Shown here: piece by piece, positions 17,026 through 22,813 of the stretch
How the letters are laid out: each line of letters starts with the position of its first letter
Numbering within the stretch: the first letter of the stretch is position 1
NCBI GenBank assembly: GCA_002070905.1
Contig: MWEF01000001.1
Coordinates: forward strand, 1-64,000
Direction of reading: 5' to 3'
Length of the DNA stretch: 64,000 nucleotides
Source: Tenericutes bacterium ADurb.Bin087
GTDB taxonomy: Bacteria > Bacillota_I > Bacilli_A > RFN20 > CAG-826
Notes under the pieces: generated by a model
What the model was told of the DNA's origin: nothing
Databases searched by the model: none
What the model saw: the letters and a program-made list of their open reading frames with translations, nothing else
Position numbers and translations under genes: made by a program

Positions 17026-17042
17026 TATGTATAATATACATA
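17026..17042. promoter_or_regulatory. Palindromic -10 region before the GGDEF-EAL-like/proS operon
   Basis: TATGTATAATATACATA is a perfect 8+1+8 dyad that contains the TATAAT box. Near-identical dyads cover the -10 of upp (33558) and of the diguanylate cyclase gene (21539). Confidence 0.5.
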
Positions 17043-17050
17043 GGTGATTT

Positions 17051-18799
17051 ATGCAGGACATTATTAATTTCATATTAGAAAACTTACCAAGGGTAATACT
17101 ACTTAGCGGCACAATAGTGATGTTAGTTATTGCTGTGCTTTTAATTATTCACGGTAATCGTAAAGATCTTAAAGACCAAAACATTATTTTAGGAAATATA
17201 ACAACACCGCGGATTTTTCTTCTTGACTTAGGTGAAGGAAAAGTCACTTACTTTAATCGCGGTAGTTTTGGCGAACGCAAAAATGGTTTATTACCACAAT
17301 TTTTTCAACAATTTACCGCGAAAGAAGTTGATCGACTTGATAAATGGGTTAACGCTTTAATTGATCCAAAAAGTGAAGCAAGTAAATTTTATAAAGTTGA
17401 TGTTTTTGTGCGAGATATGCGTCGGTCATACGCTTCAATTTTAGAAGTAACTGGTGTCGATTATGAAAAAAAGATTATTCACCTTGAATCTTATTTGTAT
17501 CGATATTTAAAGGCTAATGACCAAATGAATTTAACGGTGAAGAAAAAAGAGAATATAGGTTACTTAACTGAAGAAGAATTAGTAAAGGTATACAGACGCG
17601 CCCATAAGCGCGGGCGTGGCGTATATGGTGCGATTAGTATTGCAGTGACAGCAAGCGGAGCGCAAACGCACCGCGCAGAAATACCGCCGCATTTATGGTA
17701 TGAGTTACAAAACCAAGTCGCTGTTTATCGGAAACGAAGTCGCGTCATTCGTTTTGTTGATAATCATACTGTTGGCATATACTTCCCGCGTTCAAGTGAT
17801 GTTGATACCGCTATTGATGTGTTCCAATCAATAAAGAAACGCATGAGCGGTTATCTCCAAAAAAATGGCTACAACGAATATTCACTCGGGATTGGGTTAA
17901 CGCGGTCTCGTCAATTTTCGGAGATGAATATGTTTTTTAAAACAGCGGAAGAATTAAGTCTTTATGCGCTTAAAGAAGACGGTCGGCTCTTAATTCATGA
18001 TCCAAATCAAGAAATTAAAGACATGGACTTAAGTTTATATCGCAGTGAACTAACACAACTTGTGGCTCGCAAGGGAGTCGATACTTTATTTCAACCAATT
18101 GTTAATGCTAAAACAGTTGAAATATTAGGGTACTTAACGACCTTCAGCATCAGCGGTTCATTATTCGGGAGTTTCAATGAAGCTGCGCAATTTGCGCGAG
18201 AAAATAAGCAAAACGAACAGCTTGTAAAGATGGTGCTCCGGAAGGCAGCGGCCCGTTATTACAATATGCGCCGCAATAATAAGCAATTACTATTTGTCCC
18301 CCTTGGGTTAGGTGGAGTCGACTTTATTAGTGATGCTTTTAGTACGCAGCCATTTGCGAATGATCTCAAAATGGTCTTTATGTTAGAAGAACAAGATTTC
18401 GCTAACACATTTGTGAACATTGAAGATATGTTAAAACTGATTAAGAATATTAAAAAACAAAAGTATGAAGTGTGTTTAATCATTAGTGATACTGAATTAA
18501 CACTGCCAGACAAAATTTATGGTGAAGTTGATTACTTTATGGTGAATGAAAAAATCTTAACCCATACAGTTAATGATGAACGGGAACGCTTATCCTTACT
18601 TTCATCATTAGGTAAATTATTACGTCATCAAAAACCAATAATGATTAGTGATTTGCCAAAGTGGAGTGAAATCGAGTATTATATTCGGGCAGGTGTAGAT
18701 TATGTCGCTAGTGATGAAATTAGCAAGAAAGACAACAGCTTGCAAACTATTGATAAAAAGAAAGCACTAAGAATTATTAATTTTAGTAAGAGGAAATAA
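17051..18799 (+). CDS. Degenerate GGDEF-EAL protein, membrane-anchored
   Basis: 582 aa: one N-terminal membrane helix (~13-34), a linker with a PAS-like region (~50-150), a GGDEF-like fold (~175-315) and an EAL-like fold (~330-575). Both output sites are lost. The GGDEF position reads VGIYFP (~241-246), and the EAL motif position (after LFQPIVNAKTVEILG) reads YLTTF. The usual catalytic Asn, Glu and Asp-Asp residues of EAL are also absent. The conserved fold suggests a c-di-GMP receptor or a pure scaffold rather than an enzyme. It sits 2 bp before proS and shares its promoter. GGTGATTT precedes the ATG. Confidence 0.75.
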   Translation: MQDIINFILENLPRVILLSGTIVMLVIAVLLIIHGNRKDLKDQNIILGNITTPRIFLLDLGEGKVTYFNRGSFGERKNGLLPQFFQQFTAKEVDRLDKWVNALIDPKSEASKFYKVDVFVRDMRRSYASILEVTGVDYEKKIIHLESYLYRYLKANDQMNLTVKKKENIGYLTEEELVKVYRRAHKRGRGVYGAISIAVTASGAQTHRAEIPPHLWYELQNQVAVYRKRSRVIRFVDNHTVGIYFPRSSDVDTAIDVFQSIKKRMSGYLQKNGYNEYSLGIGLTRSRQFSEMNMFFKTAEELSLYALKEDGRLLIHDPNQEIKDMDLSLYRSELTQLVARKGVDTLFQPIVNAKTVEILGYLTTFSISGSLFGSFNEAAQFARENKQNEQLVKMVLRKAAARYYNMRRNNKQLLFVPLGLGGVDFISDAFSTQPFANDLKMVFMLEEQDFANTFVNIEDMLKLIKNIKKQKYEVCLIISDTELTLPDKIYGEVDYFMVNEKILTHTVNDERERLSLLSSLGKLLRHQKPIMISDLPKWSEIEYYIRAGVDYVASDEISKKDNSLQTIDKKKALRIINFSKRK

Positions 18800-18801
18800 A
18801 G

Positions 18802-20235
18802 ATGAGTAAGATTAAAATTGATGCAATTACAACCCAAAGTGAAGATTTTGCCCAATGGTACACTGATGTGTGTCGCAAGGCGGAATTAATGGATTATAGC
18901 GAAGTTAAAGGTTTTATTATTTACCGACCTTATGGTTATGCGATTTGGGAAAATATTCAAAAATATTTAGATGAAAAGTTTAAAGAAAAAGGTCATGATA
19001 ATGTGTACATGCCCCTTGTTATTCCCACAAGTCTTTTTCAAAAAGAAAAAGATCATATCGAAGGTTTTGCCCCTGAAACATTAGTCGCAACACAAGGTGG
19101 TAATCAAAAGATTGAAGATCCACTTATTATTCGTCCGACAAGTGAAGTATTATTTTGTGATCACTACGCTAAAATAGTTAGCTCATATCGTGATTTACCA
19201 AAGAAATATAATCAGTGGTGTTCTGTCGTTCGCTGGGAGAAGACAACGCGTCCTTTTTTACGCGGTAGTGAATTCTTATGGCAAGAAGGGCACACGATTC
19301 ATGAAACGGAAGTAGAAGCACGGACCCATGCGCTTGATATGCTTAAAGTTTATGAAAACATGGGTAAAGAATTACTCGCGATTCCGTTTTTAACCGGTAC
19401 TAAAACCGAGAAAGAAAAATTTGCCGGCGCTGAACAAACTTTTACAATTGAAGCACTTATGCCAGATGGTAAAGCTTTACAATGTGGTACAACTCACTAC
19501 TTTGGTGATGGTTTTGCCCGTGTTTTTAATATTCAATTCCAAGATCGTAATAACACTTTACAATATGTGCATCAAACTAGTTTTGGTGTTTCAACGCGTT
19601 TAATCGGCAGTGTTATTATGGCGCATGGCGATGATAATGGGCTTAGCCTACCACCACGGCTTGCTCCTGTTCAAGTTATCATTGTCCCTATCCAACAAAA
19701 TAAACCAGGAATTATGCCAAAAGCCTTAGAACTTGTCAGTCGCTTAAAATCAATTGGTGTTAGAGTTAAAATTGATGACTCCGATAAGTCACCAGGCTGG
19801 AAATTTAGTGAACATGAAATGAAAGGTATCCCGCTGCGCTTAGAAATTGGTCCGCGCGACCTAAAGGCGGAAGTTTTAAGTGGTTCAATTCGTCATAGCC
19901 ATGAAAAAATTAGTTTTGCCGATAAAGATTTAGAAGAAGTAGTGCCGGCACTCTTAGAAAAGATTCATGAAGATATGTATCAAAAGAAACTTACTGATTT
20001 ACTTAATCACACCATTGAAGTAAGAAGTATTGAAGAACTTGAAGATGCCCTTAACAACAAATTAGCGTACGCTAAGATGATGTGGAGTGGTGATCAAGAA
20101 GACTTAGATGTGATTAAAGAAAAATATCAAGCAACCGCTAGAGCCTTACCTTTTAATCAAACTCCATTTGCTAAAAAGTGTTTAATCAGTGGGAAACCCG
20201 CTAAATATGTTGTAATCATCGCTCGTGCCTATTAA
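18802..20235 (+). CDS. proS: Prolyl-tRNA synthetase (archaeal/eukaryal type)
   Basis: 477-aa class II synthetase that charges tRNA-Pro. It lacks the large editing insertion of E. coli-type ProRS and has the type-3 layout: motif 1 YRPYGYAIWENIQ, TSEVLFCDHYAKIVSSYRDLP, motif 2 RWEKTTRPFLRGSEFLWQEGH, an anticodon-binding domain (~285-385) and a C-terminal domain ending in a terminal Tyr (ARAY). AGAGGAAATAAAG provides the ribosome site 2 bp after the upstream stop. Confidence 0.95.
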   Translation: MSKIKIDAITTQSEDFAQWYTDVCRKAELMDYSEVKGFIIYRPYGYAIWENIQKYLDEKFKEKGHDNVYMPLVIPTSLFQKEKDHIEGFAPETLVATQGGNQKIEDPLIIRPTSEVLFCDHYAKIVSSYRDLPKKYNQWCSVVRWEKTTRPFLRGSEFLWQEGHTIHETEVEARTHALDMLKVYENMGKELLAIPFLTGTKTEKEKFAGAEQTFTIEALMPDGKALQCGTTHYFGDGFARVFNIQFQDRNNTLQYVHQTSFGVSTRLIGSVIMAHGDDNGLSLPPRLAPVQVIIVPIQQNKPGIMPKALELVSRLKSIGVRVKIDDSDKSPGWKFSEHEMKGIPLRLEIGPRDLKAEVLSGSIRHSHEKISFADKDLEEVVPALLEKIHEDMYQKKLTDLLNHTIEVRSIEELEDALNNKLAYAKMMWSGDQEDLDVIKEKYQATARALPFNQTPFAKKCLISGKPAKYVVIIARAY

Positions 20236-20278: not shown

Positions 20279-20369
20279 GGAGTAGTACCCAAGTTGGTGA
20301 AGGGGCTTCCCTGCTAAGGAAGTAGGTCGGGTAACTGGCGCGTGAGTTCGAGTCTCACCTACTCCGCCA
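20279..20369 (+). tRNA. tRNA-Ser (anticodon GCT)
   Basis: Class II tRNA. Acceptor GGAGTAG/CTACTCC, anticodon stem CTTCC/GGAAG with loop CTGCTAA (GCT), long variable arm, T-loop TTCGAGT, CCA encoded. Decodes AGC/AGU. Confidence 0.95.
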
Positions 20370-21623: not shown

Positions 21624-22813
21624 ATGTTCTTACAAAACTTATTAGAAACCCTTATTAAACTAGATGTAAAAACAATGATGGGTGTTTTAATTTGTGGCAA
21701 TTTAGTGTTATCACTTTTAACACTTCGTTATTACATATATCACGATTCAAATTATGATAAAACAATAATCCAAAGATTTGGTATTGCTAAAATTTTACAA
21801 GCAATCGCGTGGTTATTTTTATTTTTTAGAGGGGAAATAAGTGATGTTATTTCTGTTTACTTTGGTAATATATTGCTCTTTGTCAGTTTTTATTTAGATT
21901 CGTTAATTGTTTTACGGCTAAATGATAAGTGGACAAAGGGCTGGGTGTTAACACAAAGTGTTTTATTAGCGGTAGCAGTTATCTTATTTTTAGTTTTTGA
22001 AATTACGCTTAGCGCTGCGCATATTAGGGTTGGGATTGCTTCTTTAGCGGTATTTTTAGTTTTTGCCGCCCCTAATGTTTTAAGTATTTTAAATAAAGAG
22101 AGCACGAAGTTTCAAAAAGTCATTGCCGCAATAAGTCTGCTCTTCCTTATCTTCCTCTTATTACGAGCATTTAATTCCCTATTTGATAATGAGATTGTAC
22201 TTTTCACTAATAATTTCTTCCAAATTGGTACATTCCTTGCCTTAGTGTTATTAATGTTAACTAATGGCGTAGGATTTTTACTTATAATGTATGACCGCTC
22301 TTATGCATTAGTGAAAGAAAGTTCTAATTTAGATCCGTTAACACGCATTTATAATCGGCGCTTTTTTATGAATAAAGCTGAGTCCTATTTTAAGCGGCAC
22401 AGCAAGAAGATGGTTACTTATCATTTCTTTTTATTGATATTGATTTTTTCAAGAAAGTAAATGATACTTATGGACACTTATTTGGGGACGAAGTATTAAA
22501 GGTTGTAGCAAAGACAATCGCAGAAAACATTCGACCATTAGATCTTTGCTGCAGATTTGGCGGGGAAGAGTTTTTAATTTATTTACATGACACTAGTAAA
22601 GAAGAAGCGATCACAATCGGTAATAGAATTCGGGAAGTAGTGCAACTATTAGAATTTAAACAAGTTAAAGAATATAAATGTACAATTAGTGTCGGTGTAT
22701 ATTCCGCTAAGCCAAACACCGAAACAAACCTCCAACAGTTTATTGATAATGTTGACCAAGCTTTATATAAAGCAAAAGCTTCTGGTCGTAATTGTGTAAT
22801 GAGTTTTGATTAA
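21624..22813 (+). pseudogene. Membrane diguanylate cyclase (GGDEF), frameshifted
   Basis: The first frame (278 aa, to 22460) gives seven to eight membrane helices (~1-225), then the start of a GGDEF domain (LDPLTRIYNRRFFMNKAE). It derails near 22414-22420, where one T appears missing. The other frame continues with FIDIDFFKKVNDTYGH, the active-site RFGGEEF, and ADQALYKAKASGRN-like DQALYKAKASGRN to the stop at 22811-22813. Restored length is about 396 aa with an intact GGEEF site, so the ancestral protein should have made c-di-GMP. As read, the product lacks the catalytic loop. Confidence 0.82.

What the first reader, a model, noticed from the sequence alone, without database searches (positions are those of the whole stretch)
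17051..18799. Doubly degenerate GGDEF-EAL protein coupled to proS
Both output motifs are replaced (VGIYFP, YLTTF) yet the fold and length are kept, and the gene lies 2 bp before the prolyl-tRNA synthetase under a shared promoter. A catalytically dead EAL-like domain linked to translation of Pro codons has no obvious explanation. It may be a ligand sensor or membrane scaffold.
Basis: partly seen in the sequence, partly recalled or inferred. Interest (0 to 1): 0.55.

Follow-up and report, generated by a model that had tools for sequence, protein, structure and literature searches.

The report
Dead signalling protein beside proline-tRNA enzyme
A membrane protein built like the enzymes that make and break the signal c-di-GMP has lost the residues needed for that chemistry, yet a group of uncultured bacteria keeps it, often in one operon with the enzyme that charges proline tRNA, so it probably now works as a scaffold rather than an enzyme.

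Summary
Window 17051-18799 (+) encodes a 582-aa PAS-like/GGDEF-like/EAL-like protein with a hydrophobic N-terminal helix, 2 nt before a family-I proS. The fold is clear (AF2 pLDDT 84.8; EAL barrel Z about 23), but the catalytic and c-di-GMP-contact residues are lost in 27-28 of 28 members at seven key sites.

It is no decaying gene: dN/dS is about 0.08 and 0.24, and 188 of 196 genomes of the order match its profile (at least one only through ordinary GGDEF-EAL genes). 29 of 54 bearers have no other GGDEF or EAL domain, so a c-di-GMP role is unlikely.

It lies directly upstream of proS in 109 of 110 genomes of its family (the exception is a contig break) and 15 of 15 of another. But tight gene pairs are mostly kept there anyway (80-90%), the pair is apart in two other families, and in some genomes without family-I proS the gene keeps another neighbour, a divergent tRNA-Ser(CGA).

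In two lineages the neighbour is a catalytically dead ProRS paralogue, the best hint of a role beyond aminoacylation.

Best reading: a c-di-GMP-independent pseudoenzyme scaffold, architecturally like CsrD or LapD, in an inherited translation-gene block. Function unproven.

The parts
17051..18799 (+). 582-aa PAS-like / GGDEF-like / EAL-like protein with both catalytic sites lost
   Evidence: ORF and translation; AF2 model and PDB fold matches; family alignments A1 and A3
17084..17152 (+). N-terminal hydrophobic helix (residues 12-34), likely single membrane anchor
   Evidence: sequence by inspection; helix 12-49 in the model; hydrophobic N-termini in A1; no membrane predictor run
17210..17500 (+). 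PAS-like domain (residues 54-150)
   Evidence: strand/helix order in the model; PAS-GGDEF-EAL PA0861 among the best whole-model Foldseek hits; no Pfam PAS match and barely covered, so inferred
17561..17998 (+). GGDEF-like domain (residues 171-316), motif replaced (VGIYFP at 17771-17788)
18029..18775 (+). EAL-like barrel domain (residues 327-575), motif replaced (YLTTF at 18131-18145)
17030..17035 (+). TATAAT, probable -10 element of the two-gene operon; SD-like AGGTGAT at 17042-17048
   Evidence: sequence; same TATAAT in G003 and G001; not proven
18802..20235 (+). proS, family-I prolyl-tRNA synthetase, 477 aa
   Evidence: TIGR00408 563.6 bits
16860..16952 (-). tRNA-Ser(CGA), divergent, directly upstream of the gene; conserved neighbour
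20279..20369 (+). tRNA-Ser(GCT) directly downstream of proS; conserved neighbour

Best explanation
The gene encodes a single-pass membrane protein whose cytoplasmic PAS-GGDEF-EAL module is a double pseudoenzyme. It no longer makes, breaks or (on sequence) binds c-di-GMP, and acts as a protein-interaction scaffold or sensor relay, in the manner of E. coli CsrD rather than of the c-di-GMP receptor LapD. It is an inherited core gene of one order of uncultured Bacilli. In its own family and in f5 it is expressed with proS because both sit in an inherited block, tRNA-Ser(CGA) <- | -> dead protein -> proS -> tRNA-Ser(GCT). Shown here: fold of the GGDEF and EAL parts, loss of sites, purifying selection between congeners, distribution, gene order. 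Inferred: membrane topology, PAS identity, co-transcription, scaffold role. Unknown: the partner. ProRS, or the dead ProRS paralogue that is the neighbour in two lineages, is the leading candidate but not the only one.
For: Fold kept, sites lost: EAL Z 23. In 28 members from eight families (A3) the E of EAL is kept in 1 of 28, R of ExLxR in 1, the two DDFG aspartates in 1 and 0, catalytic K in 0, EGVE glutamate in 0, QGY glutamine in 0; 12 of 12 canonical EAL domains from the same order keep each of these (profile alignment E 4.1e-17). dN/dS 0.08 and 0.24. Profile match in 188 of 196 order genomes, at least one of them not this protein. 29 of 54 relatives bearing it have no other GGDEF or EAL domain at E <= 0.01 (hand count). 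Operon: gaps of 2-53 nt or overlaps of up to 20 nt in 30 loci; adjacent in 109 of 110 (f1), 15 of 15 (f5), 1 of 1 (f2). Protein genes beyond the block are shuffled: nearest upstream homologous in 13 of 237 locus pairs, nearest downstream in 11 of 277 (26 loci chosen for having the pair). [quoted passage not shown]
Against: No partner has been found; there are no interaction, expression or localisation data. N of VNxS and the first E of ExTE are kept in 7 and 9 of 28 members, so ligand binding is not excluded for some distant members. HD-GYP phosphodiesterases were not searched for. Neighbours in f4 and f8 (YitT; FtsH and Hsp33) share no theme with proS. The PAS assignment is weak. dS is near saturation, so the dN/dS values are rough.
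Confidence: 0.6

Rival explanations
1. The protein is a ProRS (or ProRS-paralogue) regulator: the dead EAL barrel binds family-I ProRS at the membrane and couples proline charging to an envelope signal read by the PAS-like part. This is a narrower form of the best explanation.
For: Near-invariant pairing in f1 and f5. In G034 (f2) and G038 (f6), whose full-length ProRS scores far below the family-I cut-off and lies elsewhere (571- and 574-aa frames), the gene is followed directly by a 378- or 369-aa ProRS paralogue that lacks the class II motif 2/3 region but keeps the anticodon-binding domain (Pfam 2.8e-13, L144) or the ProRS C-terminal domain (5.9e-8, L135); its model matches whole ProRS structures (E 7.5e-24). 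In G004, a 0.4-Mb draft genome, a 539-aa frame with a hydrophobic start fills the slot between tRNA-Ser(CGA) and proS, though its profile match is too weak to call (11.7 bits, E 3e-5, heavy composition bias; 2.4 bits with A3).
Against: Gene and family-I proS are apart in f3 (0 of 4 adjacent) and f4 (0 of 2). Five f3 genomes keep a dead ProRS paralogue away from the gene. Tight pairs are mostly kept in general.
Confidence: 0.2
2. Pure gene-order inheritance: the protein has a function unrelated to translation and is next to proS only because proS shares its promoter and the block is rarely broken.
For: Control pairs kept 132 of 159 and 135 of 168 between two genera of the family. The gene keeps its divergent tRNA-Ser(CGA) in f3 genera g33/g40 (5 of 5: L140-L143, L167), which have no family-I proS over the cut-off, and proS keeps tRNA-Ser(GCT)-Asp-Gly in f3 g47 (L150, L152), as if one ancestral block had been broken in the middle.
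Against: Does not explain why a degenerate ProRS paralogue remains next door in two lineages. The pair's 109 of 110 is above the average control pair, though the control compares only two genomes.
Confidence: 0.5
3. It is a c-di-GMP receptor of the LapD/FimX type.
For: Same domain order and fold; LapD and FimX structures among the listed matches.
Against: Contact and metal residues lost across the family; 29 of 54 bearers have no other GGDEF or EAL domain.
Confidence: 0.05
4. It is a decaying relic kept only because it precedes an essential gene.
For: Catalytic residues lost; other c-di-GMP genes in this genome look frame-broken.
Against: dN/dS 0.08-0.24, conserved length, and presence at full length in lineages where it does not precede proS.
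Confidence: 0.04

Closest known systems
CsrD (E. coli; membrane-bound degenerate GGDEF-EAL protein, RNase E specificity factor)
   Same: Membrane anchor plus doubly degenerate GGDEF and EAL domains; described as not appearing to make, degrade or respond to c-di-GMP (PMC5876332, passage)
   Different: CsrD's partners (CsrB/C, EIIA-Glc) are known; the CsrD model NF008281 matched one distant member weakly (E 2.3e-4, 19.6 bits against a 663-bit cut-off) and not the window protein; here a PAS-like domain and proS linkage
LapD / FimX (c-di-GMP receptors with degenerate GGDEF-EAL)
   Same: Fold and domain order; among the listed structural matches
   Different: LapD binds c-di-GMP through its degenerate EAL domain (PMC3032553, abstract and passages); here the contact residues are lost
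PA0861 and DosP (PAS-GGDEF-EAL proteins with solved structures)
   Same: Whole-chain matches at the top of the list
   Different: Those keep a catalytic EAL (recalled); this protein keeps neither active site
HisZ-like paralogues of aminoacyl-tRNA synthetases
   Same: The 328-378 aa ProRS paralogues are synthetase relatives without the catalytic motif region; HisZ is a HisRS paralogue without adenylation activity (PMC9437257, passage)
   Different: HisZ regulates HisG; the ProRS paralogues sit beside the dead GGDEF-EAL gene (2 loci) or away from it (5 loci)

Membership tests
GGDEF-EAL tandem protein (fold) | GGDEF-like domain followed by an EAL TIM barrel | tested here: met
   EAL Z 21-23; whole GGDEF-EAL structures aligned over about 151-568; Foldseek E down to 2e-19
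Diguanylate cyclase | GG(D/E)EF active-site motif | tested here: not met
   VGIYFP in the window; no GG(D/E)EF in the 28 rows of A1, by inspection
EAL phosphodiesterase (c-di-GMP) | ExLxR, N, E, DD, K, E, Q metal/catalytic residues | tested here: not met
   kept in at most 9 of 28 at any of 14 sites and in 0-1 of 28 at 9 of them; the window protein keeps none of the 14; 12 of 12 canonical relatives keep 13 of the 14
LapD/FimX-type c-di-GMP receptor | c-di-GMP contact residues of the EAL pocket | tested here: not met
   (sequence only); binding itself not testable with these tools
CsrD | match to the CsrD family model | tested here: not met
   no match for the window protein; one distant member at E 2.3e-4, far under cut-off
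CsrD | membrane-anchored, doubly degenerate, c-di-GMP-independent | tested here: inconclusive
   hydrophobic helix and degeneracy seen; independence only inferred from 29 of 54 genomes
CsrD | targets regulatory RNAs to RNase E | not testable with these tools
   needs experiments
Family-I prolyl-tRNA synthetase (window proS) | TIGR00408 equivalog score | tested here: met
   563.6 bits against 437
Family-I prolyl-tRNA synthetase (neighbour in L144 and L135) | TIGR00408 score and class II motifs 2 and 3 | tested here: not met
   80.8 and 64.7 bits against 437; motif 2/3 region missing in alignment

The most novel reading that the evidence does not exclude
A membrane-tethered double pseudoenzyme of the GGDEF-EAL class that has moved from c-di-GMP signalling to being a partner of prolyl-tRNA synthetase, a pairing so useful that in two lineages the synthetase partner itself survives as a dead paralogue after another ProRS took over aminoacylation: a pseudo-cyclase/pseudo-synthetase complex at the membrane, linking envelope state to translation.
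Probability: 0.15. Interest if true: 0.8.

Novelty: new variant of a known kind. Interest (0 to 1): 0.5.

Why it matters
Proteins with both domains degenerate have been described as likely c-di-GMP receptors (PMC3032553, passage). Here is an order-wide family with both sites and the pocket residues lost, kept in genomes with no other GGDEF or EAL domain found, so the fold seems to have a conserved c-di-GMP-independent job in small-genome Bacilli. The dead ProRS paralogues beside it in two lineages turn an odd operon into a testable pair.

Tried and rejected
c-di-GMP receptor: held unlikely on residue loss and on genomes without other GGDEF/EAL domains. Fusion with ProRS: the 940-aa frame at proS of G344 is an overlapping read-through frame, not a fusion. 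T-box or riboswitch control: no Rfam leader at gathering score between tRNA and gene in the 13 loci searched; the one T-box (L026) lies beyond the tRNA-Ser and points away. Leaderless start as a special feature: a TATAAT-like box 5-11 nt before the first start codon in 16 of 28 f1 genes, but also in 65 of 344 and 63 of 223 first-in-transcript genes of two relatives, so an enrichment of two- to three-fold; the window gene itself does not have it. Strong coupling argued from shuffled flanks: weakened by the tight-pair control and by the tRNA genes, which ignored. A tree of live and dead ProRS puts the 7 dead rows on one side with 100/100 support, but they are very long branches, so one origin or several is open. 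Literature: seven searches listed nothing on this pair by title or abstract; only open-licence PMC papers are held and most listed papers were not opened. PMC10868615 and PMC11915838 were looked at in passages and did not bear on the protein.

Limits of counts: one search used only places printed (and, for two rows, 9 and 11) (132 genomes); 16 further genomes had only the dead-protein place and G051 and G372 only proS; proS rows of other low-ranking genomes were not pasted because their dead-protein place was not printed. L010 (near-identical to the window) and L036 (f5) were left out of A1. One search used the 26 of 80 named loci that have the gene. Start codons were chosen by hand where several were possible. 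The 29-of-54 count was made by hand: 24 bearers without any GGDEF row plus 5 whose only row is the protein itself; 3 more bearers (G035, G047, G052) have only a sub-threshold GGDEF row elsewhere and are not counted; G004 is not counted as a bearer. That the low-scoring full-length ProRS is the bacterial type is inferred from length and score; no family-II search was run on those genomes.

Full report
What is there. The ORF at 17051-18799 (+) is real: 582 aa, 2 nt before proS. proS is a family-I ProRS. The window lies in a 1.09-Mb, 88%-complete draft genome. So this is an uncultured member of the Bacilli; the order's name is not shown by the tools.

What the protein is. The AF2 model has good local confidence (pLDDT 84.8) but low pTM (0.48), so domains are trusted and their mutual placement is not. 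PDB matches are PAS-GGDEF-EAL, GGDEF-EAL and EAL proteins. A profile comparison of the EAL part with 12 canonical EAL domains from the same order gives E 4.1e-17. At the canonical sites the family has lost the E and R of ExLxR, both aspartates of DDFG, the catalytic K, the EGVE glutamate and the QGY glutamine in 27-28 of 28 members, while 12 of 12 canonical domains keep them; N of VNxS and the first E of ExTE remain in 7 and 9 of 28; the window protein keeps none of the 14 sites listed. No row of A1 has GG(D/E)EF (by inspection). Pfam finds EAL at E <= 0.01 in 20 and GGDEF in 3 of 28 members of A3; PAS is not among the families listed.

It is maintained. dN/dS is 0.115/1.378 against G003 and 0.323/1.349 against G001; proS has 0.061/1.247 and 0.114/1.314. 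dS is near saturation, so the ratios are rough. 188 of 196 genomes of the order match the A3 profile at E <= 1e-6; at least one, G051, does so only through ordinary GGDEF-EAL genes. Eight have no match: G016, G393, G398, G431 (f1), G048, G337, G348, G365. In a class-wide sample of 296, the matches outside this order are partial and no better than E 1.6e-16, as ordinary GGDEF or EAL proteins would give.

It does not seem to need c-di-GMP. Of 58 relatives, 54 have the protein; 29 of these have no other GGDEF or EAL domain at E <= 0.01 (hand count). Incomplete assemblies may hide some, and HD-GYP was not searched.

Linkage to proS. Where both places were printed, the gene lies directly upstream of family-I proS on the same strand in 109 of 110 genomes of its own family, 15 of 15 of f5 and 1 of 1 of f2, but 0 of 4 in f3 and 0 of 2 in f4. 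The f1 exception, G397, has both genes at contig ends. Of 80 named proS loci, 26 carry the protein next door; at least 7 of the other 54 have under 500 nt upstream and cannot tell. Loci titled Izemoplasma, Acholeplasma, Kandleria or Eggerthia are among those without it. In G016, G398, G393 and G431 neither the gene nor a ProRS was seen; the rows there look like other synthetases by length, which fits a neighbouring pair being missed together. G004 was the one f1 relative with proS and no profile match. On a closer look its proS is preceded, with a short overlap, by a 539-aa frame with a hydrophobic start, and the two are flanked by tRNA-Ser(CGA), divergent, and tRNA-Ser(GCT). The profile match is too weak and biased to call homology, but the slot is filled even in this 0.4-Mb draft.

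How strong is the linkage? Protein genes beyond the block are shuffled: nearest upstream gene homologous in 13 of 237 pairs of loci, nearest downstream in 11 of 277 (38 of 237 and 11 of 277 if the nearest two are allowed). But tight co-directional pairs in general are mostly kept: 132 of 159 and 135 of 168 between G280 and G294; from the window, 8 of 9 and 9 of 10. The control asks for reciprocal best hits, so it favours conserved genes, and it compares few genomes. The pair thus behaves like a good operon, somewhat better than average, not like a clear exception.

A larger block. tRNA-Ser(CGA) lies divergently and within about 200 nt upstream of the gene in 24 of 28 f1 loci of the first set (L029 and L034 none, L032 over 1 kb away, L033 co-directional), and in 19 of 23 informative named loci (L045 and L050 one gene away, L053 co-directional, L061 none; L062 and L065 cut, L040 not scanned); the sets overlap. 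It is also there in f2 (2 of 2 loci looked at), in f5 (L036 yes, L148 no, L153 cut), and in f3 genera g33/g40 (5 of 5: L140-L143, L167), which have no family-I proS over the cut-off. It is one gene away in f6 (L135) and absent in f3 g51 (0 of 3), f4 (0 of 3), f7 (0 of 1) and f8 (0 of 4). tRNA-Ser(GCT) follows proS within about 130 nt in 17 of 24 informative named loci (1.1 kb away in L069, absent in 6, L039 cut), and also in f3 g47, where proS has lost the gene (L150, L152). The simplest history is one ancestral block, tRNA-Ser(CGA), gene, proS, tRNA-Ser(GCT), broken in some families.

The dead ProRS. In G034 (f2) and G038 (f6) the full-length ProRS scores far below the family-I cut-off and lies elsewhere, yet the gene is directly followed by a 378- or 369-aa ProRS paralogue. 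The motif 2/3 region is missing in alignment; the anticodon-binding domain (L144) or the ProRS C-terminal domain (L135) passes Pfam's cut-off. The model of the L144 protein (pLDDT 79.9, 7 sequences) matches whole ProRS structures. Five f3 genomes carry such paralogues on a contig other than the gene's. So a non-catalytic ProRS persists in three families, and in two it stays beside the dead GGDEF-EAL gene. This is the best hint of a joint function outside aminoacylation, but it rests on two loci.

Other contexts. f8: FtsH-like, Hsp33, then (in L131-L133) a further gene that is a metallophosphoesterase in L131, then the gene; in L165 the gene follows the Hsp33-like one directly. f4: a CNNM-like gene (L136, L138), YitT, the gene (in L136 with a further frame between). 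f7: a run that looks like rplI-dnaB-...-rlmH. Domain names FtsH, Hsp33, metallophosphoesterase and YitT are for L131, L136 and L138; the others are recalled from sequence starts. I see no common theme.

Mechanism. A c-di-GMP-independent membrane scaffold fits the data. CsrD shows that such a protein can exist: membrane-bound, degenerate in both domains, its EAL domain binding EIIA-Glc (PMC5876332, passages). Some degenerate GGDEF domains of E. coli make specific protein contacts in two-hybrid tests (PMC5635695, passages). Which partner is bound here is open; ProRS is the leading testable candidate.

Verdict. The degeneracy and the conserved operon stand; a specific link to Pro-codon translation does not follow from them. 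I file it as a new variant of a known kind.

Noticed in passing
window 21624-22792 (+): A GGDEF protein gene is split between two frames (GGDEF pieces at 22326-22412 and 22385-22792); the near-identical genome G002 shows the same split, so it is probably not a sequencing slip.
   Followed up: partly
window 2695 to about 4900 (-): A GGDEF-EAL gene is spread over several frames; the G002 counterpart (L248) aligns at 99.6-99.7% in two blocks with gaps and an unaligned stretch between, and its domain hits are also split. c-di-GMP genes may be decaying in this genus.
   Followed up: partly
L155 4427-5530, L156 4660-5754, L157 3977-5074, L158 666-1733, L159 4341-5327: Dead ProRS paralogues away from the gene in f3 genomes; four of the five lie next to a 702-713 aa protein with a start like KIIPITDLRNTNEIS, and a similar 710-aa protein lies next to the live proS in L152.
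   Followed up: partly
G280 and G294 (L168-L247): TATAAT-like boxes 5-11 nt before the first start codon in 65 of 344 and 63 of 223 first-in-transcript genes: leaderless mRNAs may be common in this family. No shuffled control was run.
   Followed up: partly
L068 (CAMBSI010000006.1): A record titled Staphylococcus epidermidis carries this group's gene-proS block with both tRNA-Ser genes; the MAG is probably mislabelled or mixed.
   Followed up: no
G016, G398, G393, G431: Genomes 86-96% complete in which no ProRS was recognised and no dead GGDEF-EAL gene found; a shared assembly gap or something odder.
   Followed up: no
upstream of the gene in L021, L024, L026, L028 (weaker in L018, L034): An inverted repeat like TTTGAC...GTCAAA lies between tRNA-Ser(CGA) and the gene in some f1 members, not in the window's genus (by eye); possible operator or back-to-back -35 elements.
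   Followed up: no
L251 2948-4564 (+) (G004): In a 0.4-Mb draft genome of the same family a 539-aa frame with a hydrophobic start fills the gene's slot between tRNA-Ser(CGA) and proS; homology not established.
   Followed up: partly
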